DNA from: Xylogone sp. PMI_703
Taxonomy: Eukaryota; Ascomycota; Leotiomycetes
Assembly (NCBI GenBank): GCA_021399445.1
Contig: JAJTUQ010000001.1
Location: forward strand, 5,084,001 to 5,148,000
DNA: 64,000 bases
Direction of reading: 5' to 3'
Positions 10,837-31,222 of the stretch are shown here, piece by piece. The notes below the pieces were generated by a model, which saw only the letters and a list, made by a program, of their open reading frames with translations, was not told the DNA's origin and did no database searches. A program made the position numbers and the translations under genes. Numbering within the stretch: the stretch's first letter is position 1; each line of letters starts with the position of its first letter.

Positions 10837-11720
10837 TCACATCTGTGACTTGAGCTTCATCAGAGTCAGTCCATTAAAGATTGGGAGTAGTATAACATCA
10901 AATTGAGGATGCTACAGTTAGTTAGCTATTGTCATTCTACTATAATTAAGAGCGTTTAGGATTACCTTTACAGCCCAATTATTGAATTTGTGCACATTGT
11001 CAGCATGTTGGAGACTATATTCTATGTCTTCCTGACTTGAATGGGGGTTGGTGGGAGATCTGTCTGCTACCAAGCCTAAATGTATAGCTATCTATGTATT
11101 AGTCTCTGTTGAGATAGTATAAAATGGCAATACGTACTATCGTCCACAAGAATAATCCCATTCTCCGCAAGGAGATTATTTTGGAGAATGATCTCAAGGT
11201 ATTCAATATATTCGGACTTGCGTGCGTCGACATATATAATGTCAAAGGAGCCTTCTTTGATATTTTGTAATCTATAAATAAAAATAACTTTTAGTTTGCA
11301 TTCTAACTCTTCACAAGAAATATCAACTTACGTCTCAATTGCAGGACCTTCCAGCAGATGGATCTTTCTTTTTGGATCGTACTTTTTGAAGGCTGCTTTG
11401 CACGCTTCGATGGCCCGGGCCCCAGCCTCACAAGTCCAGACCTCTCCTCCTACTGCTTTCATTCCTTCTTTCCATGCTAGAGCGCTGTACCCAGTGAATG
11501 TCCCAATTTCGAGAACACGTCTTGCACGCCGATCGCTGGCGAGAAAAATGCACAGCTGGGCTTGCAATGGACAGCACATCATATATGAGGTTTCAAATTT
11601 TTCCGTAGTCCATGCGGCGAGCTCCGTAAAAATTGACGGTAATGGCGTGGAGCGAGAACAGCAATACTTATCGACTCTCGTCGCAGTTTCGTTGGGAAAG
11701 GGGATAACGCTTTCGTACAT
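10837..11720 (-). CDS. Class I (caffeoyl-CoA-type) O-methyltransferase; AnkF-like
   Basis: Model: exons 11720-11332, 11271-11138, 11075-10966 and 10911-10837. Junctions are GT-AG and the phase is consistent, giving 235 residues, the usual length of this family. SAM-binding motif I is VLEIGTFTGYSALAW (about residues 69-83). The metal/substrate loop IIYVDARKSEY (exon 2) and the ENGIILVDDS strand follow. The last exon ends in VILLPIFNGLT, matching the conserved LP-x-x-(D/N)GL end of the family. These cation-dependent enzymes methylate catechol-type hydroxyls. That fits a pathway in which a tyrosine-derived ring has been meta-hydroxylated: in NK13650 biosynthesis, as I recall, AnkF methylates a phenol. 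Assignment to that step is inference from family and neighbourhood. Confidence 0.85.
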
Positions 11721-13533
11721 AGTGGCGGATTGATAATGAGAGATCAGTGGCTTTTTCGGGCTGTGGTCAGTAAGTATCTACTGGCGGAGCTATCTAGAAA
11801 TTGAGGTAGTTATAAATTAATATAGATTATATTCCATGGAAATGTCATAACAATGTATCTCCGACTCTTATATATTAGCAATGGATATTGTACAACTGAA
11901 ATTCTCTCTAGACACTAAAATTCGTATTTTGTTTTTTTTCTGCAGGATATTATTTTCCTTTACACTTGGCTAATATAAGCACATGTATAAACTTAAGATT
12001 TCAGGTTATTACGTGGACTTGCGCAAGATATCCCGTCATTTTATATAATTGATGGTTGAGCTAATGATTATCAATTAAATCTACGGAGCTCTGTTTTTTT
12101 AGTGTAATTGATTCAAAATCCCATCGCAATTTTCCCAAATTTTCAGATCGTATCTCATTTTGGAGCTAAATGAGACATGTCTTTTCAGATACATATCTGG
12201 ACCCCAATCCTTGTAATTTCATGTTAATACGGTGGATCTTAGAAAATTTTGGTCTTAAATTATATTTGATCCATATTATAAAGTGGTAGTTGCCAGGGAA
12301 CGTTAGTCTGCATTACCGTGTCGTGTTGCAAAGTTTAGGGCAAAAGCGACACCCAATCATGAAGTCAATAAATCGACATTTACAATGTTGCTTATTGCTT
12401 GGACAGCTTTACATCGTATGCAACATGTGAACCAGCGTATGCACTCTTTGATACAAGAACTGTCTCTGGCATGGATCGTCTGTATGCATTACATTCAGCT
12501 TTAAGTTTGGTGATCATCCAAATATTACAATATGGATATCTGGTTAAACAGCCACTCATTCACTAGACTGGCTGCATGTGATCTGTACTGATGCCTCTTA
12601 TTCGGCCTCGTAGTTGCTCGTTCCTGAGACAAATAATAGACTTTCTTTGCTTTTGATATGGAAAAGCAGGCAGTACCCCTTAGCATAAATCGAGAGAATT
12701 GATATATTCAGCTACGGGTGTTATGGAACCCCAATGATTCTCAGCCCTACAGGGACCTGGGGTGGCGTTTGTTTGGGAATGTAGGTTCACAATATGGGAT
12801 AAAGATTCCTTATGTGTTACAGCATATTACCAAGCACTGTTGGTTTGGGACTGCAGATGCGGTTACAAATTGAGACACTCCAATGACATATGCTCCGGAT
12901 GTGGTAACACGTTCAATTCTAGTAGGATATAATTAATTTGGAGACAATGTCTCGCCCTACAGATAGTACAGATGCATGTTGTCGTGAGCTGAGTTATCTT
13001 AGACCCTGGGGCCAGCCTGATACACGGTCGGCTGGGATTGAATGGTTTCTAATACCCGGCTGATCATTTATATTGTAAGAAAATATAAGAATTATTTTTG
13101 GTGTAAATTATTTTTCTTTTCCCATGCTTGCTGTCTCACTTACTATGTGTGGCACTGATGAGTTGTCATAATTTCTTTTGCCTAATAAGCTAAGCTGCTC
13201 AAGCAGTGAGACATTCTGTCCGCTAAGACAGTGGACCAATACAATACTTTGGCTGAGGAGGAGAGTATTCTTACTATATCATTGTCTGATCAATTAATAA
13301 ACAATTTCTGCGTAACTATGTAAACCTTGCATAACATGCTTTGGGCCATTTCCGTTGACTGTAAACTACCATCGGACGTTGCAGTATTTGGCAGAATTCC
13401 GTGTGCTAGGTACCATGCTAATGTAATTTCTGTACAGAAGAGATACATGAGACTCAAAATACTAATAATCTTAACCAATGAATCGTAGCATACCATATTT
13501 CCTACCATGTTATGCGTACACCGCGGAATGTAG
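11721..13533. other. Long intergenic region with a small Cys-rich open segment
   Basis: About 1.8 kb, AT-rich. The only notable coding-like signal is on the plus strand at 12744-12932. There an open segment without ATG encodes two Trp-Cys blocks (WECRFTIWDK and WDCRCGYK), then ICSGCGNTF and a stop, resembling a small zinc-ribbon end. It could be the last exon of an unannotated small gene or a remnant. Nothing else is recognised. Confidence 0.3.
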
Positions 13534-14289
13534 TTAAGAATCTTTCAAAAACTGTCTTAACCATCCAACAGCTTCGTTTTTCCCTCTCACCATCGCGGCC
13601 CTCTCACCGAGTTTTTGCTCATCACCACGCACAAGACATCCATGCACAACGCCAGGGAAGTGATGATAGTCAAAGGGCAAATTCAGCCTCTGCAGCGTCT
13701 CAAACGTATGCAGTTTGAGCTCCGCGGTATACGCCTGATCAATTTCCGGTGCCAGGATCTGCACGGGGACAGCTACTTCATCAATATCCTTCTTCGTGAG
13801 CAGAGACGGATGGCCAATGGAAATACAATCCACCAGCGGTGTAGATGTATGCTCTTTTGCGCCAAGTCGGAATGATGCCCATCCGCCATAGCAGTAACCC
13901 ACCGCGCCAACTTTCTTGTACCCAACTTGTTGCCTCAAGACACGTGCGCAAGCAAAGATCTCAGACTCCCGGATTTCCCGGCCATTACGCTGCATAAACC
14001 CAGGCAGGTCAAACTGATCGAATTTCTCGGCAGCAATAAGATCAAAATCAAGAACCTCGCCGTCGAAGAAGTCAGGCACATAGACCGTTGCCTCAACTTC
14101 GCGAGCAAAGTGGTCTGCGAGAAGACGGACGTTAGGGAATGTCCAGCCAAATAGGTCCGCAATGAATATGATGGCGACATCGGCATTGTTGCCAGTGATG
14201 TAGATGTCGTTATTGCCGAGTTTGGCGATGCTGCCTGTAGGTGTACCTTCCCACGAGAAGCCTTGGATGCAACAGTTCGTGATAGACAT
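13534..14289 (-). CDS. Dienelactone hydrolase family protein
   Basis: Intronless gene of 251 residues, a normal length for fungal DLH-family proteins. The catalytic Cys is Cys133 in GAVGYCYGG, the acid Asp184 in LAPEIDQAY and the base His216 in FPGVVHGC, so the triad is complete. The N-terminal GTPTGSIAKLGNNDIYITG is the usual start of the group. The family hydrolyses lactones and esters in the cytosol; many fungal members have no known substrate. It lies 370 bases downstream of the candidate cyclodipeptide synthase on the same strand and could be co-regulated. No homologue is part of the ank pathway as I recall it, so its role (tailoring, self-protection or unrelated) is open. Confidence 0.88.
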   Translation of the reverse strand: MSITNCCIQGFSWEGTPTGSIAKLGNNDIYITGNNADVAIIFIADLFGWTFPNVRLLADHFAREVEATVYVPDFFDGEVLDFDLIAAEKFDQFDLPGFMQRNGREIRESEIFACARVLRQQVGYKKVGAVGYCYGGWASFRLGAKEHTSTPLVDCISIGHPSLLTKKDIDEVAVPVQILAPEIDQAYTAELKLHTFETLQRLNLPFDYHHFPGVVHGCLVRGDEQKLGERAAMVRGKNEAVGWLRQFLKDS

Positions 14290-14662
14290 CCTGATATATC
14301 GTGATAACTAGCAATAATCCTTCAGTATGCGTATGGTTAGCTGGACTGCGATATCTAAGAAGGTAATCTAGTTATGTCTGCGGCGTAGAACTGATAATAT
14401 CCATCTCCGCAATCTCAGCCCAATCACAATGAAATCACTAAATACGCGATCAAATAAGAAGCATCCTTAACTTTGATAGTCTTTCACTTCCTCTCATTGA
14501 GATAGGTGGAGCTTATTTTGTGACCAAAGAGTCAGGATATGACTTCTTCCACATGTGTGTATAAGATTTTGTATTTGAATCGGTTAATCTATCCCCTATA
14601 AAGTGACGGCTCAGAAAACTCGCAAGAATCGTGCTTTGTATTCTGTTGGGCAAAGTCTAGAT

Positions 14663-16264
14663 TCAATAGGAAAGACCCACTTCTAGGAATAGATCCTCTA
14701 ACATTTCAGCTGTATCAGCTCCATACAGTTCTTTAACAATATCGAATGGATTTAACGTTAATCCATCTGACAAACCACCACCATTACTTCGATAACGCTT
14801 CTTGTCGTCGTCAATACTCTCGCAAGATTTCAACCTTGGGAATTCCGGAGATGGGTCATCCAGGTACAGGTTAGAGCCCGTCTGGTTTCTGCTGATGAAC
14901 ACCCGTCGACATAGGTAAACTTCCAGTAAGTTTGGAAGGCTAGACTGTTGAGGGGAAGATGCGCGTAGCTTCTTCAGAAGTTTCTGCGATCGAGAATAGA
15001 TAAGTCGTTCAAATGCGTCGTCAACACTTATTAGTAACCTAGGAAGTTTGTGGTAGCGATTCATGCTATTAACAACCTTATTCTGTTCGAAGGCCGTCCT
15101 CATGACTTGATAGACGTAGAAAAGGTAACTGAGAGATCGAAAATCTTTTGGCGTTTCCTTCTCTGGGATGAAGCGGTAAAAATTGGCCCAGTTGGAACTT
15201 TCCGCATCTAATGCTTGTAATATGTCGCCAAGGGATGGAAAAACTTCGTTGGTCAATGATTCACAGATCATTTCATATACCAGATCCGCTAGAGGTGAGA
15301 CTTGGATGTCAATTGTACAACAAGTGACATCACCACAACGCAGTGAGAGTCCGTAGTTGATATAGCGACAAAATACTTGAGAGAGTTGGTGATGACGTTT
15401 TTCAACTGCTTGCATCCATCGCAAAGCCTCACGGAAAGTGCAGTAGCCATCACGTAGGCGTTGCTCCACCGAGTGGTAGTAGTGGAAACTGGGTATGTCC
15501 AAGCAGATCTTTAGAGAGCGAACATTCGTGGACACAGGTTGATGTTGACCGGCCGTGTTGTTGTTGAGGAGTGCTGCTGCTAGATCGGCAATGACGGGAG
15601 TAGCTCGGGAGAGATATTCGACTTCATATAGCGTAGGCTTAGCAAATTGGAGCTTGTCCACATCGAGACCTTGACCTTCGGGCATGCTAGACTGGATAAC
15701 TTTGGAAGAGAAGAGGCACATGCCAGATAAGAGAGTAATTTCCTGTAGGCAATTCGACTGGTGCTGCCATTCATTCTTTATTGTAGGTGTCGCCACTATC
15801 TGGGATGCTGGACTCGAGAAATGCAGATAGTGCGTAGATGCCACACTTTCTCTAGGTTTGAGAGATTGAAAACGAAAGTGAACCTTCTCAAACCAGCTTA
15901 TACCTTCAAGACAGCGAGCATGGCCTTCACAAGGTGACCCCCCAACCAAGCCACTACTGGTTACAGTCATTGAGCTAGACTGAACGTTTGTTTCATTGTT
16001 GTTGATGACCTCGGCAGCTTTTAACGCAATTTTATGTCCTTTAATGAATGCTTTGATGTACTTAGCTTCATCGTAACCACCATTGGCGCTGTGTGGTTCA
16101 TTTGCTATACATGGATGGTGATGGTACCCATCGATTTCAGATGAGTACTTGTGTGTACAATGTTCAATATCATGGAAAGTGACGACGCTAGCTTGAGATC
16201 CAGCTTCATAGTGGAGATCAGCGATAAAGAGAGCATCTTTCATATACCGCAAGTTTGCCGCCAT
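14663..16264 (-). CDS. Candidate arginine-containing cyclodipeptide synthase (AnkA-like), by context
   Basis: Single-exon gene of 533 residues starting at ATG 16264; the frame stays open 15 codons further but without another ATG. No standard catalytic motif is recognised by eye: there is no Rossmann GxGxxG, no adenylation-domain or P-loop motif. The most conserved-looking block is LDIPSFHYYHS followed by VEQRLRDG and FREALRWMQAVEKRHH (about residues 255-292). Later come SNWANFYRFIPEK and a C-terminal acidic segment. There is no convincing signal peptide or membrane span. The assignment rests on its neighbours: P450, FAD hydroxylase, gamma-synthase-like PLP enzyme, NIS synthetase and O-methyltransferase, the set I recall around AnkA, which condenses Arg and Tyr into cyclo(Arg-Tyr), using aminoacyl-tRNAs. 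It is divergently transcribed from the PLP gene. Fungal members were long annotated as hypothetical proteins, which fits. It could instead be an unrelated hypothetical protein. Confidence 0.62.
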   Translation of the reverse strand: MAANLRYMKDALFIADLHYEAGSQASVVTFHDIEHCTHKYSSEIDGYHHHPCIANEPHSANGGYDEAKYIKAFIKGHKIALKAAEVINNNETNVQSSSMTVTSSGLVGGSPCEGHARCLEGISWFEKVHFRFQSLKPRESVASTHYLHFSSPASQIVATPTIKNEWQHQSNCLQEITLLSGMCLFSSKVIQSSMPEGQGLDVDKLQFAKPTLYEVEYLSRATPVIADLAAALLNNNTAGQHQPVSTNVRSLKICLDIPSFHYYHSVEQRLRDGYCTFREALRWMQAVEKRHHQLSQVFCRYINYGLSLRCGDVTCCTIDIQVSPLADLVYEMICESLTNEVFPSLGDILQALDAESSNWANFYRFIPEKETPKDFRSLSYLFYVYQVMRTAFEQNKVVNSMNRYHKLPRLLISVDDAFERLIYSRSQKLLKKLRASSPQQSSLPNLLEVYLCRRVFISRNQTGSNLYLDDPSPEFPRLKSCESIDDDKKRYRSNGGGLSDGLTLNPFDIVKELYGADTAEMLEDLFLEVGLSY

Positions 16265-17166
16265 CCCGTATAATATTGCCGTTGCCGTACAAGATATCAA
16301 CTCTATCAACTTCTGAATTCTGATAATGATTATGATTTCTAACAGTGATGATATATGTCACCGGCTCCTCTCTAGTGCATTCAATCCATAGACTGTAGGA
16401 CCGGCACTAAATGAAACATCCTCCATATTGATTAAGCACAGGAGGAAGACGCTGGACAAGATCGCTCGATTGCTTCATGGCAATCATCATATTCGTGTTA
16501 CATTCTGGAAAGGCAATTGGGTAATATTACGGTCTCTTTCAGTTAAAACTGCAGCCCAAGTCCGCTGGGACATCCAGGCTGCATTCCACGAGGTCGAGAA
16601 ACCGAGGCGCATCACCAGGAGTATCGATGGAATGAAGTCATTGGAGTTAGATTGGTAAGTAGCAGAGTAACTTGCTTTTTCCTATACGCGTTCCATGGTT
16701 ATACACACGGGAAAATGTAAGTTAGCATACGCAACATATGTAGTGTTACTTCTTTTGCTTTGTTAATGTACTAACTAAGACCTGCAGCTCAGCCTTACCA
16801 GGACCGAATCAAATCGTACCTACCGTATAATCTCACGGCGAAAGACCTTAACCAAGGAACAAAATGTAACGCTATGCAGTATGTATTATCTGCTACGAGG
16901 CCAATCATTCGCTAAATATACCATGTAGCGTAATACATGGGTTTAACTCGAGGCCCCTTGATATGACACTATGCGGTACTAAGTAGGTACTGAAGCAAAA
17001 TACGTAGGAGATTTGTAATGAAGGTCTTTTGGGGTTCTCTACCGATCCATCTAAGATTCTCTGCCAACTTCAAAGTGTTTTCTAAGAAACGAATTGAAGT
17101 CAATTCATTCCCCCGGTAGTTTTATCAATACTTCCGAATTTCCGACAAAGAAGATAAACTTGGACA
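16265..17166. promoter_or_regulatory. Shared divergent promoter of the candidate synthase and PLP-enzyme genes
   Basis: About 900 bases separate the start codons of two divergent cluster genes, so the region must hold both promoters. An open frame at 16428-16658 (+) has no motif and is not called. I see no clear palindromic regulator site that can be assigned to a known factor. Confidence 0.5.
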
Positions 17167-19125
17167 ATGGGTGAACTTGGGCCCATAGCTTCTGAAGAAG
17201 AGCGCAGCAAGATCGGGCTCACAAACTCTCACACATTGCCTCTAGGAGCATCACAGCCACCAAATGAGCCTCATGTACGTTAGCTAATTGTCCCAGTCCA
17301 CTGTATCCTATTGCGCTCATATTGATATAAACCATTAGGCTATAAGTGTCTCCCTACCTACCTGGGAGTCCGTGGCTGCTGCGGTGGCAGGAGCTGAATG
17401 GATTGACAACAAACTGCAGACCTCCTATCCTAGGTAATATCAAATTATTTCCGTACCTACTCGACATAGGAGGTCACCTGTATCTAACATACTACTAGAT
17501 TTGGGGCTCACGACTACGTGATCCACTTACATGATGCTATTATGGCGAGATTTGAGCACCCAACTAACATGGCATGCCGAGCATTTCCTTCTCGCGATGC
17601 TGCAAAGCGTTTAGTCTCGTGGTTGAAGAAGGCAGATCCAGAATTATCTTCATCTACAGCAAGGTTCTTTTTTCCTTCCGCTTTGAATATAAGTACATCG
17701 AAATGGGCTGGGTTCTCTGTGGTGTTGTACCATAAGAGCCTAGAAAATAAAGCCAGTGTTTTCTGGGAATGGTTTGGAGATGGTATTTCAAGCCGTCAAG
17801 CTGCCTTTTGCTTAAGTCAGTTCCATCTACTGGACTCAGAATCCGAGGATCCAAAGTTTCAGACTTTCGCCCAGAACCCCAATAGTCTTATTCCGGCGAT
17901 TCATTCAGAGTGGATTGATTCCGCCACTAAGGAAAAACTAAAGATAAGATCTCAGCTGGCTAGATTCTCGGAATCAGCAAAGCCAAACATGAAGCAAGTC
18001 AAAACCAGTGATGTTTTCCTCTATCCTACTGGAATGGCCGCAATTAGTGCTGTGTCTCGCACACTTGCTCAGACATCATCAGAGTCTGTAGCTGTTGTAT
18101 ATGGGTATGTTTATACTAAGCTTGATTCTAAGATGTAAGCGTGATTCATTCCTAGCTAACCCAGAAAAAAAGGTGGCCATATTCTGGAACTCCTCACTGT
18201 GTCGAAAACTGCGGGTTTCAACGCTTTATTATGTATGGTCACGGTTCTCCTAAAGAGCTAGACCAGCTAGAAACTTTACTAGCAACAGGAGTTAAGATAA
18301 CTGTTCTGTTTTGTGAGATACCATCGAATCCACAATTGCAAAGCCCGGATTTGCATCATATTCGAGATCTTGCCCGCCAGTTTAATTTCATGGTTGTATG
18401 TGATGATACACTCGGGACCTCGGTAAATGTAGATATTCTACCATACATCGATGTCACTGTGACGAGTTTGACCAAAATCTTTAGTGGAGCTGGTAATGTT
18501 ATGGGAGGAAGGTATAGTACATATTTCCTAGCTGAGAACCCGCTACTCGAATTCTTCTAACCCAGTATCGTGTGTTAGTCTCATAGTTAATCCGAACTCA
18601 CGACATTATGCAAGACTCCTTTCCCTGCTGAGTAGAGATTTTGAGGATTTATATTTTCCTCTTGATGCAAAAGCAATAGCACAAAACAGCTCCGACTTTA
18701 TCGACCGTATACACAAATGCAATGATACGGCGCTACAGACTGCCAAGTTGCTCGCCTCTCACCCAGCTATAGAATCTGTGAACTACCCAACCATGGTTCC
18801 CACTGCACACTTATTCGAAAGGTATCGTCGCCCTAGCGGTGGCTACGGATATATGCTTAGTATTGTCTTTCGAGAGCCAGAGAGTGCCATCTTGTTCTAT
18901 GATAATTTGGATGTCTGGAAGGGACCTAGCGTAGGCCTCAACTCTTCAATTGCCGTTCCATACTCGGCCCTCGCTCATGCGAAGGAACAAGATTGGGCCG
19001 CTTCTCATGGTGTACCACCCCATATTGTACGGTTAAGTATTGGGCTAGAGGATTATAGTGACTTGGAATCACGAATCAAGCAGGCATTACGGCGGGTTGA
19101 AGAGAGGGAGGCTGGGACACTGTAA
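17167..19125 (+). CDS. Cystathionine gamma-synthase-like PLP enzyme; AnkD-like
   Basis: Model: exons 17167-17274, 17339-17433, 17499-18104, 18173-18511 and 18579-19125. All are GT-AG and in phase, giving 564 residues. Exons 1-3 give the fungal gamma-synthase start AISVSLPTWESVAAAVAG and SYPRFGAHDYV. The PLP region has YGWPYSGTP, YGHGSPKELDQLE, CEIPSNPQLQSPD and DDT (about 347-349). The Schiff-base lysine is Lys371 in TSLTKIFSGAGNVMGG. The C-terminus has GLNSSIAVPYSALAHAKE and RLSIGLEDYSDL, as in the family. Such enzymes perform gamma-replacement on activated homoserine. In the ank pathway, as I recall, AnkD attaches a homoserine unit to the tyrosine-derived ring. A housekeeping role in methionine synthesis is the alternative, but the cluster position and divergent promoter with the candidate synthase argue for a pathway role. 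The 18512-18578 intron includes a decoy AG 18 bases before the true acceptor. Confidence 0.9.
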
Positions 19126-19777
19126 ATTATTTGATTCTGTACAATATATAATAAACCATTTATATGATTGGCATAGCCTTAGTCAAACCTACGGATCAAG
19201 TATCTACAGGCAACGAACGCAGTTTATTTCTGAGAAAATTAGTAACGACAACGATATTATTGATATACTCTTAAAATAGTTCATCTTAAGTTACAACTGG
19301 CTTGTAAGGTGTGAAACCTAGATTGCAATGTATGTATTTCCCTACATTTAGCCGGAACCAATTGTACGTAACTATGCAGACCAGGCCTGGCCAAAAATCA
19401 ATGATTCAGTAACTTTTTTCGAAACCCCTGCTAATGTAGTCCTCTGTACACTAAGTAGCCTGCATATGAAGGAGGACCGGTCCGCCCGTCATTGTATCAG
19501 TCCTATAGCCCTGTGGACTTGGCATCTGCTGTATCAGGCTGCTGGGTGAGCGATTGAAATGCCAGGGGTAGCACTGAGATTTTCTTATAGCATAGCCATT
19601 GTAAGTCTAGCTGGAGTGCCCACGATTTTGGGTCCTTGGTGAACCACCTTATCTTTATTCTAGAAACATTGATTCCTTCACAATTTTCTTGTATATCCAT
19701 TATTTCCATCCATTATTGGATGACTTTATTTTACATATTGAGTCCTAACGTGCTATCACTACCAAATCTAACGCAGC
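19126..19777. other. Intergenic region, promoter of the FAD monooxygenase gene
   Basis: About 650 bases between two genes on the same strand. Short open frames only; no other feature recognised. Confidence 0.4.
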
Positions 19778-22049
19778 ATGACCAGGTCAGACTCTAGTGT
19801 TGATGTTGTGATTCTTGGGGCGGTAAGTTCTCATTCGTGATAGTACACAGTATCTAGACTAAAAGATGTTTTTGCAGGGCCCAGCAGGGTGAGCTTTTAC
19901 TTTACTAATACTCCCTCACGGCTTGGAAGTGGACTCAAAATAGTTGACAAAGATTTTCTGGACACTCTACTAATATATCTTCAAGCTTGGTTGCGGCATT
20001 GTGGATGGCCAAGTATGGAATAAAAGCTCGCCTGGTCGAACAACGACCATATCGGCTTCGGGTTGGTGGAGCAGATGGGTAAGTCATTAACCTTCCTCTG
20101 GACCTTATACTCACCTGGGGCAACTACAGCATTCATCCACGCTCAATGGAAATGTTCGAAAGCTTCGGTATTGATCGAGAGATAACACAGGCATGGGAGC
20201 CGATTACGGGTTGGGCGCTCTGGTGCCGGGATGCCAAAGGAAATCTTGGCAGATCAGACCGTTTAGACAACCCCACGCCGTTACGTTGCAGGTAATAATG
20301 CTCCCTCTTATTAGTGTAGGACGCTGAGTAAATAAGTATGATAGATGGGGTCCCGGGGTTTTACAACAAGGAATCATTGAAAGAATCATCAAAAATGAGC
20401 TCTCTCGGTACCAAAATGTTGAAATTGAGTACGAAACAACGCCCACCTCTCTTGAGGTAAGAGATATTAGTTTGAATGATCCGGACGCCTATCCCTGTGT
20501 GCTTACCTTACGTCGTGATGCAAATACTCACGCACCTGAGGAAATCATTCGATCAAAATATGTAATCGGTGCTGATGGAGCCCGGTCTTGGACGAGGAAA
20601 CAATTGGGGTTCAGCATGGAGGGAACCCGAACCAGGTCTGTTTGGGCTGTGGCGGACTTGGTGGTCGTATCAGATTTTCCAGAGTAAGTAACGGCGGCCA
20701 AACTTAATTCTAATAATAACGTTACGGGGTACGTTAAGCATCCGAATGTGTACAACGATAAACAGCTTTGGTGAAACGGGCCTCTTTTTTATTCGACGTG
20801 AACGAGGTCTGACCCGTTTCTACGTTCAGTTAAACCGGAACGATGAAGATGAGTTCCCTTCAGAGCTAATCTCACAGGAATTGATTGTGCAAAGGCTGCA
20901 GCAATTATTCAAACCATATACGGTGAGTATTGTCCAGGGAAACCGGAGAGCATCAGTTGCTAATACAATGATGATATGCTAGATAACGGTGAAGAGCTGC
21001 GAGTGGTGAGATATTTAACTCTCTAGTACATATCTGACTAATCTTGTGCCACTGACTTTGACTCTATGATTCATATATATACAGGTGGTCAAGTTATACA
21101 GTCGCTCATTATCTGAGTAATGGCATAGCCCAGCACAGTCGGGTATTTCTTGTTGGTGATGCTGTACACAACCACTCACCCCTCGTTGGTCTAGGCATGA
21201 ATATTAGCATGCAGTAGTATACCCTCTCCAATTCATTATTTCGCGTAGTAACGACTGTAACCTAGGGATTCCTATAATCTTGGATGGAAACTTGCTGGAG
21301 TGGTCAGAAAGGAACTACATCCGAGAGTTTTATCGACCTACGAGACTGAGCGACGTCCTGTCGCAGAAGAATTGATTGCTACTGATCAATTTCATCTGCA
21401 ATTTTTCGACACAGTAACTGTGACAGGCTCAGAACCTGCCTGGATGCAAAAACGGGAGCTAGAGCTGCAACCGTTTACGCAGGGCTTTTCCGTACATTAT
21501 AACGATCCGCTCCTTTCTGCTGGTACGAGGACAACGCTATTGACAGCGGAAGTTGTAGCATCAGGTGAGCGCTTCCCTCAACTAAATATGATAAACCACG
21601 CCACGGGAAAGCCATATCCAATACAATCGCTGTTGAAGAGTGATGGTAGGTTCCATGTGGTCATATTTGCAGGAGATATATCGAAGCCACAAGAATTGAG
21701 CGAATTCAATATCCTTGGAACTACTCTACGAATTATCGAAAGGCAGATCCTACCAGCTTCCATGAACGGTTTCAATGTTATTGCCATACATCAAGCAGAT
21801 AAGACGACAGTTGAACTTGCAAGCCTAGCAGAGATCTATTTCCCCGCTAGTGAGACGACGGGGCGAGACTATGAGAGAGTCTTTTGTGAGATAGATGCGA
21901 ACTACGATGAACTCGGAATTGGCAAGCGGGGTGCTGTAGTAATCGTCCGGCCAGACCAATATGTTGGATGGCGGGGTGAACTATCAGATATTGAAGGGTT
22001 GACAAATTACCTCAGGCCTATCTTTGCACCAAAGAGAAAATTCACTTAG
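19778..22049 (+). CDS. Phenol-hydroxylase-like FAD monooxygenase; AnkC-like
   Basis: Nine exons: 19778-19822, 19878-19888, 19986-20078, 20130-20291, 20345-20683, 20739-20922, 20983-21005, 21085-21213 and 21266-22049. Phases agree throughout and give 589 residues. Exon 2 is an 11-nt microexon that supplies part of the dinucleotide-binding motif: VVILGAGPAGLVAALWMAK (residues 10-28). The middle motif is VIGADGARSWTRK, and the second FAD motif is GDAVHNHSPLVGLGMN (from about residue 310) followed by DSYNLGWKLA. The last about 170 residues form the thioredoxin-like C-terminal domain of the phenol 2-monooxygenase group (PIQSLLKSDGRFHVVIFAG and VIVRPDQYVGWRG). The family adds an ortho hydroxyl to a phenol using NADPH and O2. 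In the ank pathway, as I recall, AnkC makes the meta-hydroxylated tyrosine ring (catechol). The role here is inferred from family and context. Confidence 0.9.
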
Positions 22050-23275
22050 ATAATATTGTAACCATCTCCAAACTCAATATTCAAGCATATACTTACTGGA
22101 TGTATGATCCTGAGCAAATGTATATCCGACAAAACTCTCATCTAAAATGCGTTCCTACCTGAGGCCTACTTATCCCCATTCCCAATACTCGGGACGTGGA
22201 AGGTTTGACTACTGAGGTTTTACTTCAATCGTTCAAGAAGCACACACAAGTCTACTGAGTAATTACACACCAGGGCATAGATTTACATGCACGGTAGATT
22301 ACAAGAAGTGGGATCCTCTTCAGTCCTAGCTGATTGACATACGAAAGCGCTTATTGTAATCCTATACTCTCTTTGCTTCGGGAACCATATCTGCCCACTT
22401 CATCAAGCTATCTACACCGATAGTCTATAATGCAAAGGTAGGAAGCTGACACAGATTACCGCAGAACTAAAAAGAAAGCAGGAAGAAAGCTATAGGGCAG
22501 ACATGCTCAGGAATGTCTCAAATATGTACCTCGACGCCACAATTTAGTCGGTGTAGGGTCCCCAAGTCTTACCTGCAAATACTTTCTGCATGTAGCCTGC
22601 TTTTCACCTTCCGCATATATGCACAGAGGGCAAGCATTGTAAATTAGGGAGTAGAATGCAGAAAGCTATTCATACCTATATTTCAGTTCATTCGTGGGTA
22701 ACAAAATACCTATCTTGGTTACGGTACAGTAGCTCTAGTCCAAAAGGGTACCTTATTAAATTAAGCACTGCCTCGCTCCCGCTAGCGGATGCCCGTATCT
22801 GTTTCAGTGGCTCCAAAAAGCAACTGCTGCTCAGCACATGCAATAATTGCCAACTAATATCCCGTCTTTACGCTAGCTCGAATTATTGTCTAACAGTTCT
22901 CCACTCAAAGTCGGCAAGAACTTCAACATAGAATATAACCGAAATAGGCTATTAAGACATTTAAGCTCATGTGTAAATATTATATACCAAATATTAGGTA
23001 TTTAATGTTATTTTCCGACCTAAAAGCTAGACATGTCTGGGATAACTAAGGAGTGTCTGTCGGTACCATGTTAGGCTGCCTGAGAGGTCGGTGACTAGGA
23101 CCCGGGGATCACCAGCTCAGCTGGAGTCTAGAGCGAGCATGAATATTCATACTCTACTCGACGGGGACTACATCGTTGACTGAAAAGATTTTACAGTTCT
23201 CCCTCCAGATACATTCACTCAAAGTGTTGTTCTTAGTGGAGCGTATCTTCGTTTCTCGTCATTGCCATCGGCAAA
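22050..23275. other. Intergenic region, promoter of the P450 gene
   Basis: About 1.2 kb with no convincing coding signal; one 91-codon open frame at 22656-22931 has no motif. It probably includes the 3' end of the monooxygenase transcript and the P450 promoter. Confidence 0.4.
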
Positions 23276-25347
23276 ATGGTAGTGTATAACTCAACGTCGG
23301 CCAGTTCCAGTCAATACGAGGAGATCATATTTGACAACTCTAAAATCTCTTCAAATCAAATCATTGCTCTCTTATTTTGTTCGGTTGTTTTTTATCTTTC
23401 CTGCAAATATACAAAACGTATCTATTTCCACCCGTTGAGCCATATCCCGGGCCCGCGTCTGGCAGCAGCAACTCATCTCTATGAGGCCTACTATAACATC
23501 TTCCATGATGGCTTCGCACAGCGTATGGTCTCAATGCACACGGAGTATAGTAAGTTATTCGTATTTCTCTGCAGTTCAAAAAATTGAAGGGCTTACTCAA
23601 TATGATTCTCAGATTCCCCGGTACTACGTATTGGAACCAACAGTGTCCACATTGGTGACCCCTGTTACTACCACACGTACGGCCGGTTCTCGTTCCTTGT
23701 TGATTGATATCTATGATTGACAACCTACCAGGATCTATAACTCGGGGACAGATTACCACAAGGATCCCGACCTCTATAGGTTCCTAGGGGTCGATGGATC
23801 TATTCTTACCATTACTGATCCAGAAGAGCATAAACAGTATCGCAATATTGTCAGCCCATTATTTTCAAAAAGGACAGCTGATGATCTTGCTGTTGTAATG
23901 TCATCAGTACTAGAAAAGGCATCAGCTTCAATAGCAAATCAGGGACGCGAGGGAAAACCTACTGTTATCCAGCGTGTCTACAGGGCAATAGCAGTAAGAT
24001 AAAAGTGGAAAAGAATGTGATACTTTGCCACCTCGCTCACACATCTTTTAGGCCGATATGGTGTCGTATCTTTTATTTAAGCGGCCTTTGGGGCTCATTG
24101 ACTCAGAACATGACGCTGATTTCTACCATTCTTTTATGCTTAGTATTGACAGATTCACTGGCATAACTTGGCCCAGTATGAATATTCCCATTTCCACTTC
24201 ACTAATTAAGACTAATATTGTTACTCTTCAAGGACTCTACTATCCCATCCTAAATTGGATTATCAACGGTTTTCCTACTTGTATAGTTGATAAGTTACAA
24301 CCAGGTCTGAGGGGTCTACAGGAGGTTAGTTACTTATTGCCGCTCACACTGTATAGCATTTATGGATTTTGCTCTTATTAAATGATACGATAGCTTTTCA
24401 AGGGATGGCTGGATGAAACTCTTCGAGCCCATGATACTGGAAAGCAGAATGAAGGACGGAGCACATACTTTGACCTCATGATAGAATCAAGACGCAGAAA
24501 GGGAGAGCCACTTCAGCCAGAGCAACTTTTCGATGATATAATCAATTACCTCACTGCCGGAATGGAGGCTACTGGTTACGTATTGTCCTTTGCAACCTTC
24601 TTCCTTCTTCGTCACCCAGAAGCGAGAGTAAAATTGGAGCGTGAGTTGTTTGAGTCGAAGTCCTCTATCCAAGAGTTTGACCATCGAAAGATAATGTCAC
24701 TACCTTACTTAGTAAGTTTTACCGATATAACACATGAAGTCCGAGGTCTCACGGGAGAAATAATTTCTTTAGACAGCAGTTGTTAAAGAATCGCTTCGTT
24801 TAAGTAATACGGTCCCGGGGTTTCTGCCTCGGGTTGTACCCCAAGCTGGAGTTGATATCGCAGGTTATCATATTCCTGGAGGGGTAAGTAATGTGAGCAT
24901 CTAGCGGTATGGTCATTGATGAAGCCCTGACAGACAAAAATTTCGATGGTGCATCCTGTTGTTGAACTAAACGATAAGATCTTTCCAGATCCTCACGAGT
25001 TCATTCCTGAGCGTTGGCTGGGGGATGGAAGCCAGGATTTGGAGAAATGGGCCATTGCATTCAGTAAAGGACGGCGCCAGTGTATCGGCAAGAAGTACGG
25101 CTATCCCCTTTTATATACTTTTGTTTCAACCAAGAATAATATTGCCTATACTAATCTTTCCTCTGCCCATAGTCTGGGTTACATGATGCTATATTCTTCC
25201 GTGGCGGTCTTTTTCTCGCGATTTGAGATGGAATTATACGAGACGACAGAAGCAGACATGGAAATTATCGACCAATTCGCACCCATCATTAAAGGTACTG
25301 TAAAGGTCAAGATTACCCAGGATCGATGGAAGGATTTTAGCAATTAG
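23276..25347 (+). CDS. Cytochrome P450; AnkB-like
   Basis: Eight exons: 23276-23549, 23613-23676, 23732-23993, 24052-24324, 24403-24711, 24773-24883, 24934-25094 and 25173-25347. All are in phase, giving 542 residues. An N-terminal membrane anchor (about 29-45, IIALLFCSVVFYL) is followed by the proline hinge HPLSHIPGPRLAAATH. The I-helix oxygen motif is AGMEAT (343-348), the ExxR motif KESLR (Glu400, Arg403), the PERW-type segment FIPERWLGDG, and the heme loop FSKGRRQCIGKN with Cys481. All P450 hallmarks are present, so it should be a functional ER-bound monooxygenase. In the ank pathway, as I recall, AnkB desaturates cyclo(Arg-Tyr). The same reaction is plausible here but cannot be read from sequence. 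It lies between the FAD enzyme and NIS synthetase genes on the same strand. Confidence 0.92.
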
Positions 25348-26098
25348 GTCTTTCATAAAAATGATACAATCATGAATCATACTCTAGAGATGATTAAGAA
25401 TAGGGGCAAATATAGAAGGATAAATACTGAGTTCTCATGCCCTTTTTGAAAGTACTATTGCATTACCATACCATGGACTGGTTAATGCCTATAAGGATAT
25501 TGTTAAATTAATAAAGCTCATATCATCTCAAATTTCGCAACCAGCACGTCTTAGAATGCCGATCTCGCCGACATGGATAAAAGTAGTGTACAAAAATATA
25601 GACATTATCAGGAATGCTTTTCGTATGGACTTGATGAAAGGGGTTATTATTAATAGGACCCTTACTCTTAGTTGCATTTCTAATGTTGTTTCCATGATCG
25701 TTGATTAGTAGTTAGGTAAGTCTATCCATGCTTGCTCCTTACCATGCATACAAAGTGATGCAGGAGCTGCCCTATTTCTCTTAGTTTCATATGCTCTGCC
25801 ACAGGCTGACTGAACTATCAAACTTAGATTGCTTATTCTATGTAGGATATTGCTTTTTCAAATTCGTCCCGGTTCTGGTAGAAATTTGGTTTCATAACCT
25901 TGGCATTAGAATTTTATTCGTCTTTTTCACCTCGTCATCTTCACATCTTTCTACAAGTTCTCTCTCACTTTGCATACTTTAACATCCAATATATTCAACC
26001 CTCCAAAAACTTACCGCTTCAATTGTCCATAATCCACTCCACTTTGGGGAGACACGCGGTTTATATTACTCCTGGGCTCATAATCCTATCTTAGCAAT
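25348..26098. other. Intergenic region, promoter of the NIS synthetase gene
   Basis: About 750 bases of AT-rich DNA. Only short open frames without motifs are seen. Confidence 0.4.
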
Positions 26099-28199
26099 AT
26101 GACCGTCCCGTCTATACACGACCGAGCTTTGTTTGAGGTGGCAAAGCGCCTTTTATGCCAGATACTGAATGAGGGTCTAGTCAGTGGAATTCTGCAAATC
26201 TCAGATTCTACAGAGGCAAACTATCTTTGTTTGTTGAGCAATAGTCATGTTGGCCATACTCCGGAGAAATGTATCAGGGTCAAACTACATCCAGACTCTA
26301 CAAAATGTATTTTTACGAGATCGGGAAGAATAGTTTCACTTGTTCGTCCTGAAATGTTAATGACACCAGTCCTCTTAGTCGATAAGGCTTCTGAGTCTCA
26401 TGAGCTACGCCCAACTGCATTGTTCAAGTTTGCATGCAGCTTATTTACAAAAGATATCGATGAGTCTATCTCGGAGCAGCTAGCCTTGGGCTTGGAGAAT
26501 AGTGCGGCAAATACGGGTTTGTATAATCTGAGATTAAGTTACATGGAGATGCTAATGGAACTATAGAGAAATGGCTGGAAATCCACTCTTCTGCAGAGCC
26601 ATTGCAGCTCAACTCTCCATCCATCATGTGGGAAAGGGCTCTAATATGGGGTCATCCTACTCACCCTGTACGTATGGTCTTGCACCAACCAGATGAAGAA
26701 TAATATGGTCTAATATTAGTTTCATAGTTTCATAGATTGTGCTACGCTCAAGAAGGGTTGAAGACAATAGGACCAAAAGATCTACCAGAGATTCTCACTC
26801 CAACGCTGGCTTTTGTGTCCGTTTTGCGGACAGAAACTTGCATTTCTGGTCCTTTCGAAGAAATATTGGAGCCTTTACTGATACAACTTGAGGTTCCAAC
26901 CCCTGAAAGCGAAGATAGAATTGTAATCCCCTGCCTTTCTCTACAGCTACCAAACGTCTATCGTCATTTCCCTAGTGCGGTCCTACTCAAGTCAGTTTCT
27001 CAGTGTGCGGATACCCAAGCATCAATGCGCACACTCACAATACGCCCACAGTTTAATTTTACACATCATATCAAGCTTTCCATTGCGTGCCAGGTAACTT
27101 CCGATGTTAGAGCAATTAGGCCATGCCAGACACTCGGTGGGCAATTAGTCAAAAGACAACTGGGCAAATTTTTACCAGCTGACCTATGGTGGTTCAAAGA
27201 AGCAGCATCTGTCTCAGGGAGCCAGGCAGCTGAGGCAGATACCCAAGAGAACCAAGACAAAGCGCGACATATTGGTTGCATACTTCGTGAGGATGTGGAG
27301 CCCAGAGCTAGAAGAAATAATGAAGCACTTATCGTAGCTGGGTCCTTAGCGCAATGCCCCGTAAATGATAGTATTACACATGCAGAGTCTGTCTTTGGGC
27401 TGGAAACTGTGGAGCAAAAGCAACATTGGTTCAGAAGGTATGGCACTTTCTAATTGAGAATTATAACCATATTGATAGGATCCAAATAGCTATGTTTTAA
27501 GCCTCTTCAAAGCTTTTCTTCCCTCACTTGTGCAGTACGGGATTGGAATGGAGGCTCACGGACAGAACACCTTAGTCCGTGTTTGTCTTAAAACAAAGGA
27601 GATCAAAGGGTTTGTTTTCAGAGATTTTGAGGGGATCAAAGTACATATTCCAACTTTAGAAAAACTCGGCATTGAGCTTTGCATGACATCACCGGGCTGC
27701 ACCAAGAACTTGGAAAGCATTTGGAATAAGGTTCATCATGCTCTATTCCAAAATCATATTGGTAATCTGATCTATGCTCTTGGAATTGACAAATATGACG
27801 GATGGACTATTGTTCGCGATGAGCTCTTCACAACACTCAAGCCAGATATGGACCCTCGGTCAAAAGAGCTGTACGATTATATTCTTCGGGATACTATGGC
27901 CTTCAAATGCTTTTTGAAGATGCGAATGGGTGATCAATTGAATGATGTGAGTCTCATACACCTATGAAGTCAAGCAACGCTAACTATTACAAAAATTATA
28001 GTATGATGGCGACGATCAATTAGACGGCCAATCAAATAATAAGGTAAAACCCCTTTCTATCCTTCTCGTAACAATACTAACCACCATTTCTACTTTATTA
28101 TAGCGTGATGAAAGGCAACTACCCAACGTACTACTTATGGGTTCCAGTAGATGGGAGAGTATTCTAAATGCCAATGCGCCCGAACTCAAGAGGGATTAA
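26099..28199 (+). CDS. IucA/IucC-type NIS synthetase, citrate ligase candidate; AnkE-like
   Basis: Six exons: 26099-26516, 26567-26667, 26728-27437, 27490-27946, 28002-28043 and 28104-28199. All phases agree, giving 607 residues, the normal length for an NRPS-independent siderophore (NIS) synthetase. The signature GHPTHPFHR lies at 168-176; the usual HPxHPxxK ends in Arg instead of Lys here. Further family blocks are SMRTL (272-276), KLSIACQVTSDVR (289-301), YGIGMEAHGQNTLVR (426-440) and RDFEGIKV. The exon 3 acceptor at 26727 is fixed because only it restores FHR after GHPTHP. NIS synthetases adenylate a carboxylate, typically citrate, and condense it with an amine or alcohol. In NK13650 biosynthesis, as I recall, AnkE ligates citrate to the homoserine-bearing intermediate. 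A genuine siderophore role is the alternative, but no siderophore transporter or amine hydroxylase is nearby. Confidence 0.9.
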
Positions 28200-28391
28200 A
28201 TTTCGCGCCAATCATCTACCATGTAGTTCAGTGTGCTTCCCATGGTCTGAAGACAATACATTGCGGGCAGTAGTAGACAGTATATATAGAACTTGTTTTT
28301 CCTTTCCTAATTCGAAGGCCTCCAATATTTAACTTATCTAGATGCTGCAATATGAAGCTGCTAGAAAAACACTACTTCGTACTAACATATA

Positions 28392-28414
28392 TGTTCTAGC
28401 CCATACGCCAATAT
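28392..28414. repeat. Left terminal inverted repeat of the Ginger-like element
   Basis: This 23-bp sequence matches the reverse complement of 31196-31218 with no mismatch. It is preceded by TATA, the left copy of the target-site duplication. Confidence 0.85.
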
Positions 28415-28419
28415 ATTCG

Positions 28420-29030
28420 CTTCGTAAATGGGCTGGCCCATACACCAATACGAACATTTTCGTATGGGCTAGCCCACACACCAATGTTTGAAGTTTATTG
28501 TCGTGTGGTTCAGCCCATACGCCAATACAGCTCGTACTCGGGCTCGATATAGCTACAGGCCTTAAGCTCCAAGCCATAAACTCCAAGCTACTGTCTACAG
28601 GCTATAGAGTACTCAGCGATTACAGCGCACTTAGCCACTATAATGGCCTATAATTACAGTACACTTAACCGTTACAGTACACTTAATTACTATAATAACC
28701 TATAATCACAGCACACTTGTCTACTATAATAACCTATAATTATAACGCACTTAGCCATTATAACCCGTCTAGGCTTTAAGCTTTAGGATTTCAGTCCTGC
28801 TAAACTTAATAACTATACAGTGAGAACTATACTGTACAGTGATTAACTATACTTGACCATACAAATTAGTAGTAAATTGGCGTATGGGCTATCCGATACG
28901 CAAATGCTCGTATTAGTGTACGGGCCAGCCCATGCGCCAATATTTGCGTATGGGCTGGCCCAACCACCAATATTTAAAGCTATTCGCGTATGGGCCAGCC
29001 CATACACCAATAATTGAAGCTATTCCCAGC
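28420..29030. repeat. Subterminal palindromic and tandem repeats of the Ginger-like element
   Basis: At least six imperfect copies of a GTATGGGCTGGCCCATAC-like palindrome followed by (A/G)CCAATA occur near 28430-28530 and 28870-29015. Related copies lie at 31120-31190 near the other end. Between 28640 and 28770 is a second, degenerate repeat built on ACAGTACACTTA and CTATAATAACCTATAAT. Subterminal repeats of this kind are common transposase-binding sites; that role is inferred. Confidence 0.7.
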
Positions 29031-29038
29031 CTATATAT

Positions 29039-31027
29039 TTAATCAACCACAATAACATTCCCTATAGTATCTGCCCTTGCACGCTTCCTCCTAGACCTTG
29101 TAGAGCTCTCAGGCTCAATTAAAGCTATTTCTGTACGAACTATTAAATGTGATAACCAACCACAATCATGATCATCTTTATGACAGTGTATTGTACACTT
29201 TTGACCTTCTTTAACACAACGACATCTTTTAGTATTACATAACCCTTTACACTGACAAGATATCTTAACTCTTTGACTTGTAGAAGCCTCTCTAGCAGCT
29301 GTAGTTAAAGCAATCTCATTAATGGTCTCCGGTATAATAATACTTGACCATAAGTGCTTATTGACAATCCCCAAATCTTTAGTTGGCATTAAACGATTAA
29401 GAACTCCATATTGAGTAGCAATCTTATACCTATGAGAGTGTGGTTCTGTCAATATACGACCCCAGAGTGTTCGATTGTCAGTTGAAGTTCGATCTTCTTT
29501 AGGAATCCTTATTGCTACAATATCCCCAGGTTTGAAATGCTCAACCTTATGACGTTTAGAATACTTCTGAATCATTTTAACTCTAGCCTTTTGAGTAGCT
29601 ATTTGAGCTTGTTGAATCAAAGGATCAACTGTAATTGACGGTTGAGTTTTAGTATCATACCACTTATCTTCAGTACTAGAATCTGAATCAATATCAGATT
29701 GAGACTTTTCGAATGGAGTGTCTGATTCAAAGCTAGACTTTGCCTTTAATGGGAGGGTAAGTATTGTGCTGGCTGGAACAACTGTTGAGCCAGGAATACC
29801 GGAAAGTACTCGAGGTCGAATTGGCATCTTGCCTTTGATATCCTCAGGGGCATCCCCGTGGGGAGTAGTACTTTCAAAGGTTTCCCCATGGGGAGTGGCG
29901 CTCTCAGGGGCCAGTTCAGGTACTGGCTCAGGTGCTAGCTCAAGAAGAAGAGTGTTATCAACAATTATTGTTGAATTGAGCTCTAAATTCGACTCTAATA
30001 TAAGAGGTAAAGTAGGATCTTCTTGAGGGATTCCAATGGTAAGATCTTTGCGTTTTTGGCTATCCAACCAATTGTAATAAGTATTATGATCTCTGAATAA
30101 TAATTAAGTAGGAGCATAATTGATTGTTGTATGAACTTGAGTATTCATAGCTAACGTAATCTCTACTAATCCATCAACCCATTCAGTAGAGCCGTTATCC
30201 ATTTTCCAGGCTCTGAGCTTATCTTCAAGCACTCTATTAGCTTGCTCAATAAGGCCTTGAGTTTGTGGAGTTCTTGGCTTTCCATTAACTATCCGAATCC
30301 CATATTTGCGTAATACTATAAGGAAAGCACTCTTGAATTCTTTCCCATTGTCACATTGAACGATTTTTGGGGGTAAAAAAGCCATAATAAACTGACCAAA
30401 AGCACGTGCAATTAGTAAAGATTCTTTGCTTTTAAGTGGGTATAACCGAGAATACTTTGTAAAATAGTCTTTAACATGAAAAATCCACTTATACTGGCCA
30501 GACGGTTCATGCCTCATATCGACCAAATCTACTTGAATATGCTCCCAGGCTCTCTCGACAACAATTGGCTCTAAAGGAGCTCTAGTAGTAATTGCCTGAT
30601 TAGAATTGCAATTCTGACAACAGTCGATAATCCAAATAACATCTTCACGCTTGATTCCATAGTAGTTATCCTTAATGGCTGCCTATACTTTATTTTGGCC
30701 AGCATGAAGAAGCTTGATATGTTGTTCAGCAACAATATCGAATACCTCTGAATCTTGAACTGCATATCGTCGGATAGGGTGGTGTGTATCAGGTAATCGA
30801 TATAATTGATTGTTTTCAAGCTCGAATTGAGTAATAGCTCTGTGTTTGAGATTACTATCGGATGGGTTGTTTGGTTTTAACTTTGGATTGTCCAAAAAGA
30901 TATGCATTCTTTGCCAATGTTGAGGATTGATTCGTTCTCTGTTGACATAGCTATCACTGTATATATGATCTTGGAATGCAAAGCGTACACTATTAGGAAA
31001 AGGATTGATCGATTCAATTGGGGCCAT
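29039..31027 (-). pseudogene. Integrase (rve) gene of the Ginger-like element with two in-frame stops
   Basis: One continuous frame from ATG 31027 to 29039 is broken by TAG at 30683-30685 and TAA at 30104-30106. The N-terminal part ends in a His/Cys zinc-binding region (EQHIKLLHAG before the first stop, then DCCQNCN). The integrase core has its Asp-Asp-Glu residues at QVDLVDM, VQCDNGKEF and GLIEQANRVLED. A GPY/F-like module (GRILTEPHSHRYK) and a Cys-rich tail (CQCKGLCNTKRCRC) follow; the tail is of a type I recall in KRBA2/Ginger-related proteins. Both stops sit where a Gln codon would be expected (CAG to TAG, CAA to TAA). These are CpA to TpA changes, as expected from repeat-induced point mutation. 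The protein cannot be made in full. Confidence 0.8.
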
Positions 31028-31195
31028 ATTGAATTGTAGCAATTAGCTGGAATAATTGTAAAGAAAAAGGAGAGAGAGAGAGTATTTGAGCTACACCGCT
31101 ATATTGCAATAAGTGGGGTAATTGGTGTATGGGCTGGCCCATACGCGAATAGCTTTAAATATTGGTGGTTGGGCTGGCCCATTCGCAAATGGGAA

Positions 31196-31218
31196 ATATT
31201 GGCGTATGGGCTAGAACA
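31196..31218. repeat. Right terminal inverted repeat of the Ginger-like element
   Basis: Perfect 23-bp inverted match to 28392-28414, followed by TATA, the right copy of the target-site duplication. Confidence 0.85.
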
Positions 31219-31222
31219 TATA

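What the first reader, a model, noticed from the sequence alone, without database searches (positions are those of the whole stretch)
10837..28199. Cluster resembling the ank (NK13650) arginine cyclodipeptide pathway
Six adjacent genes encode the enzyme classes I recall for NK13650 biosynthesis in Aspergillus thermomutatus: an unusual scaffold protein, P450, phenol-hydroxylase-type FAD enzyme, gamma-synthase-like PLP enzyme, NIS (citrate-type) synthetase and caffeoyl-CoA-type O-methyltransferase. A PLP gamma-synthase next to a phenol hydroxylase and a NIS synthetase is so rare a combination that chance co-location is unlikely. Inferred product: a cyclo(Arg-Tyr) with dehydro bond, catechol ring, homoserine and citrate units.
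Basis: partly seen in the sequence, partly recalled or inferred. Interest (0 to 1): 0.92.

Follow-up and report, generated by a model that had tools for sequence, protein, structure and literature searches.

The report
NK13650-type cyclodipeptide cluster in Xylogone
A stretch of fungal DNA carries a gene set very like the one another mould uses to make NK13650, a small arginine-tyrosine compound reported to block a human gene-regulating enzyme, so this fungus probably makes a close cousin of a known substance.

Summary
The splice models are clean. The "unusual scaffold protein" (14663-16264) has as its best hit, over 98% of its length at 56% identity, an Aspergillus thermomutatus protein whose UniRef name begins "Arginine-containing cyc", and is sister to that clade. 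The PLP enzyme is 66% identical to an A. thermomutatus protein with the same longest-contig length. The NIS synthetase is 70-72% identical to Eurotiales proteins. In Talaromyces rugulosus the three homologues carry tags 01400, 01401 and 01406. The scaffold and NIS genes are the only matches found in this 50-Mb genome, so chance grouping is very unlikely. The genome matches Xylogone sp. PMI_703. I read it as an orthologous ank/NK13650-type cluster outside the Eurotiales. Orthology of the P450, FAD enzyme and O-methyltransferase was not tested. No counterpart of AnkG (proposed aspartate ligase) was recognised in the window, though a divergent one is not excluded; the predicted product is therefore a des-aspartyl NK13650. 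New member of a known kind.

The parts
10837..11720 (-). Exons 11332-11720, 11138-11271, 10966-11075, 10837-10911
   Evidence: Gene model; PF01596 E 1.5e-27; closest solved structures 4ymg and 4qvk (PaMTH1), E 1.4e-45
13534..14289 (-).
   Evidence: PF01738 E 1.1e-15; 251 aa open frame; next best match in the same genome by E-value is 32% identical
14663..16264 (-). Arginine-containing cyclodipeptide synthase (RCDPS), AnkA-type core enzyme, intronless, 533 aa
   Evidence: Best hit A. thermomutatus CDV56_108942, 56% over 98%; sister of the AnkA clade; 18 columns invariant in a 46-row alignment that includes it; only match found in the genome
17167..19125 (+). PLP-dependent gamma-synthase, AnkD-type. 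Exons 17167-17274, 17339-17433, 17499-18104, 18173-18511, 18579-19125
   Evidence: 100% identical to a Xylogone sp. PMI_703 protein, 66% to A. thermomutatus CDV56_108975; motifs YGWPYSGT and SGAGN shared by the same 4 of 120 listed hits, the Xylogone protein included
19778..22049 (+). Phenol-2-monooxygenase-type FAD enzyme, nine exons, AnkC-like by class only
   Evidence: PF01494 E 3.5e-64, PF07976 E 7e-35; closest solved structure phenol 2-monooxygenase 8r2u, E 1.4e-91
23276..25347 (+). Cytochrome P450 with hydrophobic N-terminal stretch, nine exons, AnkB-like by class only
   Evidence: PF00067 E 7.7e-56; haem-ligand motif FSKGRRQCIG read from the model
26099..28199 (+). NRPS-independent siderophore (NIS) synthetase, AnkE-type. 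Exons 26099-26516, 26567-26667, 26728-27437, 27490-27946, 28002-28043, 28104-28199
   Evidence: 72% to an Aspergillus pseudoviridinutans protein, 70% to Talaromyces rugulosus 01406; only IucA/IucC match found in the genome; PDB sequence matches AcsD and AsbB

Best explanation
This is an orthologous ank/NK13650-type gene cluster in a Leotiomycete genome (Xylogone sp. PMI_703). Proposed pathway: the RCDPS joins arginyl- and tyrosyl-tRNA into cyclo(Arg-Tyr); the P450 introduces the alpha,beta double bond of the tyrosine side; the phenol-hydroxylase-type flavoenzyme makes a catechol; the PLP enzyme transfers a four-carbon homoserine-derived unit by gamma-replacement through a vinylglycine ketimine; the NIS synthetase forms an amide with citrate; the class I methyltransferase methylates a catechol or related oxygen. 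With no AnkG recognised in the window, the end product should lack aspartate (NK13650 B/D type; that B and D lack it is inferred). Shown here: gene content, integrity, and homology of the RCDPS, PLP and NIS proteins to those of ank-bearing or apparently syntenic fungi. Inferred: every chemical step, their order, the methylation site and the role of the extra hydrolase.
For: RCDPS best hit is the A. thermomutatus protein named "Arginine-containing cyc" (cut off) in UniRef, sister to that clade with support 97/90. PLP: 66% to an A. thermomutatus protein whose longest contig, 169,864 bases, equals that of the AnkA hit, with motifs distinct from the genome's housekeeping-type cystathionine gamma-synthase. 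NIS: 70-72% to Eurotiales. Linkage elsewhere: T. rugulosus tags 01400/01401/01406; Dirinaria sp. tags 004244 (RCDPS) and 004242 (NIS). Chemistry of the named enzymes: AnkA tRNA-dependent cyclo-Tyr-Arg and the proposed AnkE amide bond of NK13650B (PMC12568646, passages); AnkD gamma-substitution (PMC10367076, passages). A phenol hydroxylase beside the RCDPS fits a tyrosine-derived ring.
Against: P450, FAD enzyme and methyltransferase were not compared with A. thermomutatus proteins. RCDPS substrate is inferred from a clade at 56% identity; the window's end branch is long (0.47). The A. thermomutatus NIS protein itself was not seen in the list. AnkG counterpart not recognised; an extra hydrolase gene is present. 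PLP and phenol-hydroxylase families are common in this genome. No expression or metabolite data. The ank paper itself (Yee et al. 2023) is not held, so pathway details rest on passages in other papers and on recall.
Confidence: 0.83

Rival explanations
1. An RCDPS cluster that shares the AnkA, AnkD and AnkE steps but ends in a different compound, because the hydrolase and an independently recruited P450, FAD enzyme or methyltransferase change the chemistry.
For: Extra dienelactone-hydrolase-like gene within the set; no AnkG counterpart recognised in the window; only three of seven proteins tested for orthology.
Confidence: 0.2
2. A cluster whose RCDPS uses arginine plus an amino acid other than tyrosine, with the other enzymes adapted to it.
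For: RCDPS family members are divergent (25-57% identity to the window protein in alignment A1); that members differ in the second amino acid is recalled from the abstract of Yee et al. 2023, not seen here.
Against: Sister position to the AnkA clade; phenol hydroxylase and an AnkD-type PLP enzyme fit a phenolic partner.
Confidence: 0.07
3. A silent or decaying remnant of an ank cluster.
For: Transposon-like repeat directly downstream (28.4-31.2 kb); AnkG counterpart not recognised.
Against: All seven reading frames are intact with regular splice sites; P450, FAD and PLP catalytic motifs are present.
Confidence: 0.06

Closest known systems
ank cluster of Aspergillus thermomutatus (NK13650 biosynthesis, AnkA-AnkG; Yee et al. 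2023, not held, so recalled)
   Same: AnkA-type RCDPS (56%), AnkD-type PLP enzyme (66%), an NIS synthetase, and genes of the P450, phenol hydroxylase and O-methyltransferase classes in one block
Talaromyces rugulosus locus TRUGW13939_01400-01406
   Same: RCDPS 53% (01400), PLP 63% over 87% (01401), NIS 70% (01406) by tags and identities
   Different: The genes between (01402-01405) were not seen; no product known to me
Bacterial cyclodipeptide synthases (NYH and XYP subfamilies)
   Same: Work alike: both use aminoacyl-tRNAs to make a diketopiperazine; PMC13062777 counts RCDPS as a third CDPS subfamily (PMC13062777 and PMC11760959, introduction passages)
   Different: No sequence relation found: no Pfam hit in 46 of 46 RCDPS members scanned, no PDB match with the profile up to E 10, no relative confirmed among 63 pattern matches in prokaryote genome contigs. 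Fold not compared

Membership tests
RCDPS (arginine-containing cyclodipeptide synthase) | Full-length sequence homology to AnkA | tested here: met
   56% identity over 98%, E 9.1e-175
RCDPS (arginine-containing cyclodipeptide synthase) | tRNA-dependent synthesis of cyclo(Arg-Xaa) | not testable with these tools
   Needs expression or an in vitro assay
ank/NK13650 cluster | AnkD-type PLP gamma-synthase linked to the RCDPS | tested here: met
   Start codons about 0.9 kb apart, divergent; 66% to A. thermomutatus CDV56_108975, taken as AnkD from its contig length; the name AnkD is not printed in the call
ank/NK13650 cluster | AnkE-type NIS synthetase linked to the RCDPS | tested here: met
   26099-28199; 70-72% to Eurotiales proteins, one of them tagged six places from an RCDPS. 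The A. thermomutatus protein itself was not identified in the list
ank/NK13650 cluster | P450, phenol hydroxylase and O-methyltransferase orthologous to AnkB, AnkC, AnkF | tested here: inconclusive
   Classes confirmed; orthology not searched, cap reached
ank/NK13650 cluster | AnkG ATP-grasp enzyme adding aspartate | tested here: inconclusive
   No PF13535 or PF18130 match in the window; the longest unassigned frame in the stretches is 138 aa, and none of 9 such flank frames scanned gave an ATP-grasp match. But AnkG resembles Cp1B (about 30%), whose family may escape Pfam, and a multi-exon gene is not excluded. Needed only for the aspartyl forms
ank/NK13650 cluster | Production of an NK13650 | not testable with these tools
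   Needs LC-MS

The most novel reading that the evidence does not exclude
The Xylogone cluster makes an undescribed NK13650 congener: a des-aspartyl, O-methylated homoserine-citrate cyclo(Arg-dehydroTyr) further altered by the extra dienelactone-hydrolase-like enzyme. It would show that this pathway is spread over at least three classes of fungi (Eurotiomycetes, Leotiomycetes, and by a linked RCDPS-NIS pair Lecanoromycetes).
Probability: 0.3. Interest if true: 0.5.

Novelty: new member of a known kind. Interest (0 to 1): 0.38.

Why it matters
NK13650A and B are reported as p300-selective acetyltransferase inhibitors with IC50 of 11 and 22 nM (PMC7434864 and PMC9428678, passages). A second, diverged cluster helps show which genes are essential, gives homologues of NRPS-free amide-forming enzymes, and predicts a des-aspartyl congener. 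The core gene has no Pfam family; a public RCDPS protein of this fungus was not found, and the public NIS model lacks two stretches of 42 and 14 residues that relatives keep.

Tried and rejected
Chance co-location was rejected: the RCDPS and the IucA/IucC protein are each the only match found in 50.1 Mb and lie about 10 kb apart. By simple proportion (my inference) two unrelated single genes fall that close in roughly 4 of 10,000 cases. The PLP and phenol-hydroxylase families add less, as they are common in this genome (25 and 15 match pieces).

Housekeeping role of the PLP enzyme was rejected: the genome has a separate cystathionine gamma-synthase-type gene at C1:1751307-1752251 with the motifs FGFPYVDT and SGDCN, whereas the cluster enzyme has YGWPYSGT and SGAGN. 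Pattern count: of the 120 listed hits (of 1013), 4 have SGAGN, 86 have another pair at that place and 30 did not match my pattern; for the second motif 4 have YGWPYSGT, 104 another form and 12 no match.

A weak polyubiquitin match of the RCDPS in the PDB sequence search (best E 1.5e-4, no stretch passing on its own) was taken as chance; the family profile found nothing up to E 10. An open frame of 88 aa at 16392-16658 in the shared upstream region was taken for a possible relic; its 76-aa core has one copy in the genome and stays unexplained.

Rows left out: alignment A1 uses 45 of 48 hits (P0029, P0039, P0047 dropped); the RCDPS tree uses 42 of 48 (also without P0041, P0045, P0046); the quick PLP tree has 56 of the 60 hits P0050-P0109 and the quick NIS tree 43 of 58, by length filter. 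Some RCDPS branches are long (Cercospora 4.33), so deep order is unsure.

Full report
What is there. Seven genes lie at 10837-28199: O-methyltransferase (-), dienelactone-hydrolase-like (-), RCDPS (-), then PLP gamma-synthase, FAD monooxygenase, P450 and NIS synthetase (all +). I chose splice sites by eye and checked them by script. The 28 introns are 50-97 bases with GT...AG ends, and each frame runs open to one stop. The PLP model is identical to the public Xylogone sp. PMI_703 protein. The NIS model keeps two stretches (42 and 14 residues) that the relatives P0170 and P0171 keep and that the public Xylogone model P0169 (551 aa) lacks.

Where it comes from. The PLP enzyme matches Xylogone sp. 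PMI_703 at 100% with a longest contig of 9,083,828 bases. That is the length of contig C1, which holds the window. Xylogone is placed in Leotiomycetes incertae sedis.

The core enzyme. The 14663-16264 protein has no Pfam or NCBIfam match and no meaningful PDB match. Of 48 protein hits, the best is A. thermomutatus CDV56_108942, 56% over 98%, whose UniRef name begins "Arginine-containing cyc". In a 43-row tree the window protein is sister, with support 97/90, to a seven-row clade that holds that protein, two Talaromyces proteins and four without a species name. Eighteen columns are invariant in the 46-row alignment. No relative was confirmed among 63 pattern matches in prokaryote contigs, and the hits that carry a species name are fungal. 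The genome gave one match.

Tailoring enzymes. The PLP enzyme is 66% identical to A. thermomutatus CDV56_108975 and to T. proteolyticus, and 63% to T. rugulosus 01401; a 400-aa Penicillium alfredii protein reaches 64% over 68% of the length; the next full-length hit is at 52%. The same four of 120 listed proteins share both YGWPYSGT and SGAGN; the P. alfredii protein has YGWPYAGT and GG in place of AG. The NIS synthetase is 72% identical to A. pseudoviridinutans and 70% to T. rugulosus 01406, and 91% to the shortened Xylogone model. It is the only IucA/IucC match found in the genome. Its matches among solved structures are AcsD (E 1.6e-6) and AsbB (E 6.2e-5); AcsD is, from recall, a citrate-activating synthetase. 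The FAD enzyme is closest to phenol 2-monooxygenases and keeps the Asp, Arg and Tyr that I recall as catalytic in the Trichosporon enzyme (alignment). The methyltransferase is closest to 4ymg and PaMTH1. The P450 carries FSKGRRQCIG.

Linkage elsewhere. T. rugulosus holds RCDPS, PLP and NIS homologues with tags 01400, 01401 and 01406. The A. thermomutatus RCDPS and PLP hits share the longest-contig length 169,864, and those of T. proteolyticus share 2,504,953. In the lichen fungus Dirinaria sp. (Lecanoromycetes) the RCDPS (004244, 49%) and a partial NIS (004242, 45% over 68%) share 15,366. Equal contig lengths and tags stand in for a map; I could not read those loci.

Mechanism. AnkA makes cyclo-Tyr-Arg from aminoacyl-tRNAs, AnkE is proposed to form the amide of NK13650B, and AnkG is a proposed ATP-grasp enzyme that joins aspartate to NK13650D to give NK13650C (PMC12568646, figure-legend passages). 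AnkD is listed among enzymes that work by addition to a vinylglycine ketimine (PMC10367076, passages). NK13650A carries an aspartyl group (PMC7434864, passage). Mapping the window genes onto these steps gives a des-aspartyl, citrate- and homoserine-bearing cyclo(Arg-dehydroTyr).

What differs. No ATP-grasp match (PF13535, PF18130) lies in the window; the three places in the genome are on other contigs. Flank frames that could be named are a GNAT acetyltransferase, a DUF829 protein, a carboxylesterase piece, a nuclease-like protein, rhodopsin-like pieces, dehydrogenases and a sugar transporter; the stretches between hold only frames of up to 138 aa. AnkG is related to Cp1B at about 30% identity, and Cp1B itself has no detectable identity to other characterised ATP-grasp enzymes. 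So a divergent AnkG, here or elsewhere in the genome, is not excluded. The hydrolase has no assigned role.

Verdict. This is a likely orthologue of a published pathway in another fungal class, and antiSMASH 7 already carries a rule for arginine-containing cyclodipeptides (PMC10320115, passage). Searches for a report of this cluster in Xylogone: term Xylogone, 15 of 32 papers listed; NK13650 and RCDPS terms; 25 of 4,368, 20 of 27, 7 of 7 and 20 of 24 listed. None of the titles listed describes it, in a library that lacks most subscription papers.

Noticed in passing
L002:607-9878 (G000:C8, unlinked to the window): A PLP gamma-synthase-family enzyme beside a 673-aa ATP-grasp protein (PF18130, PF13535), an ABC transporter and an alpha/beta hydrolase: possibly another small peptide-like biosynthetic cluster in the same genome.
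   Followed up: partly
window 28387-31223: Transposon-like element: an integrase-core frame (30104-30682, -) and a frame with a CXC-like end seen by eye (29039-30103, -), flanked by 70-base inverted arms 96% complementary, an unusual pairing as far as I recall; 92 matching stretches listed in the genome, the window's own included.
   Followed up: partly
window 26099-28199: The public Xylogone NIS protein (P0169, 551 aa) lacks stretches present in relatives and in the DNA here, and no public RCDPS protein of this fungus was found; public gene models may hide the cluster.
   Followed up: partly
window 16392-16658: An 88-aa open frame in the shared RCDPS-PLP upstream region, single copy in the genome; relatives elsewhere were not sought.
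   Followed up: partly
window 37628-60385: Two short-chain dehydrogenases, two sugar-transporter-like proteins, an X-Pro peptidase-like hydrolase, an epoxide hydrolase, a GH2 glycosidase, a weak transcription-factor match below its cut-off, a PhyH dioxygenase and a Gfo/Idh/MocA oxidoreductase: looks like a separate catabolic gene group.
   Followed up: no
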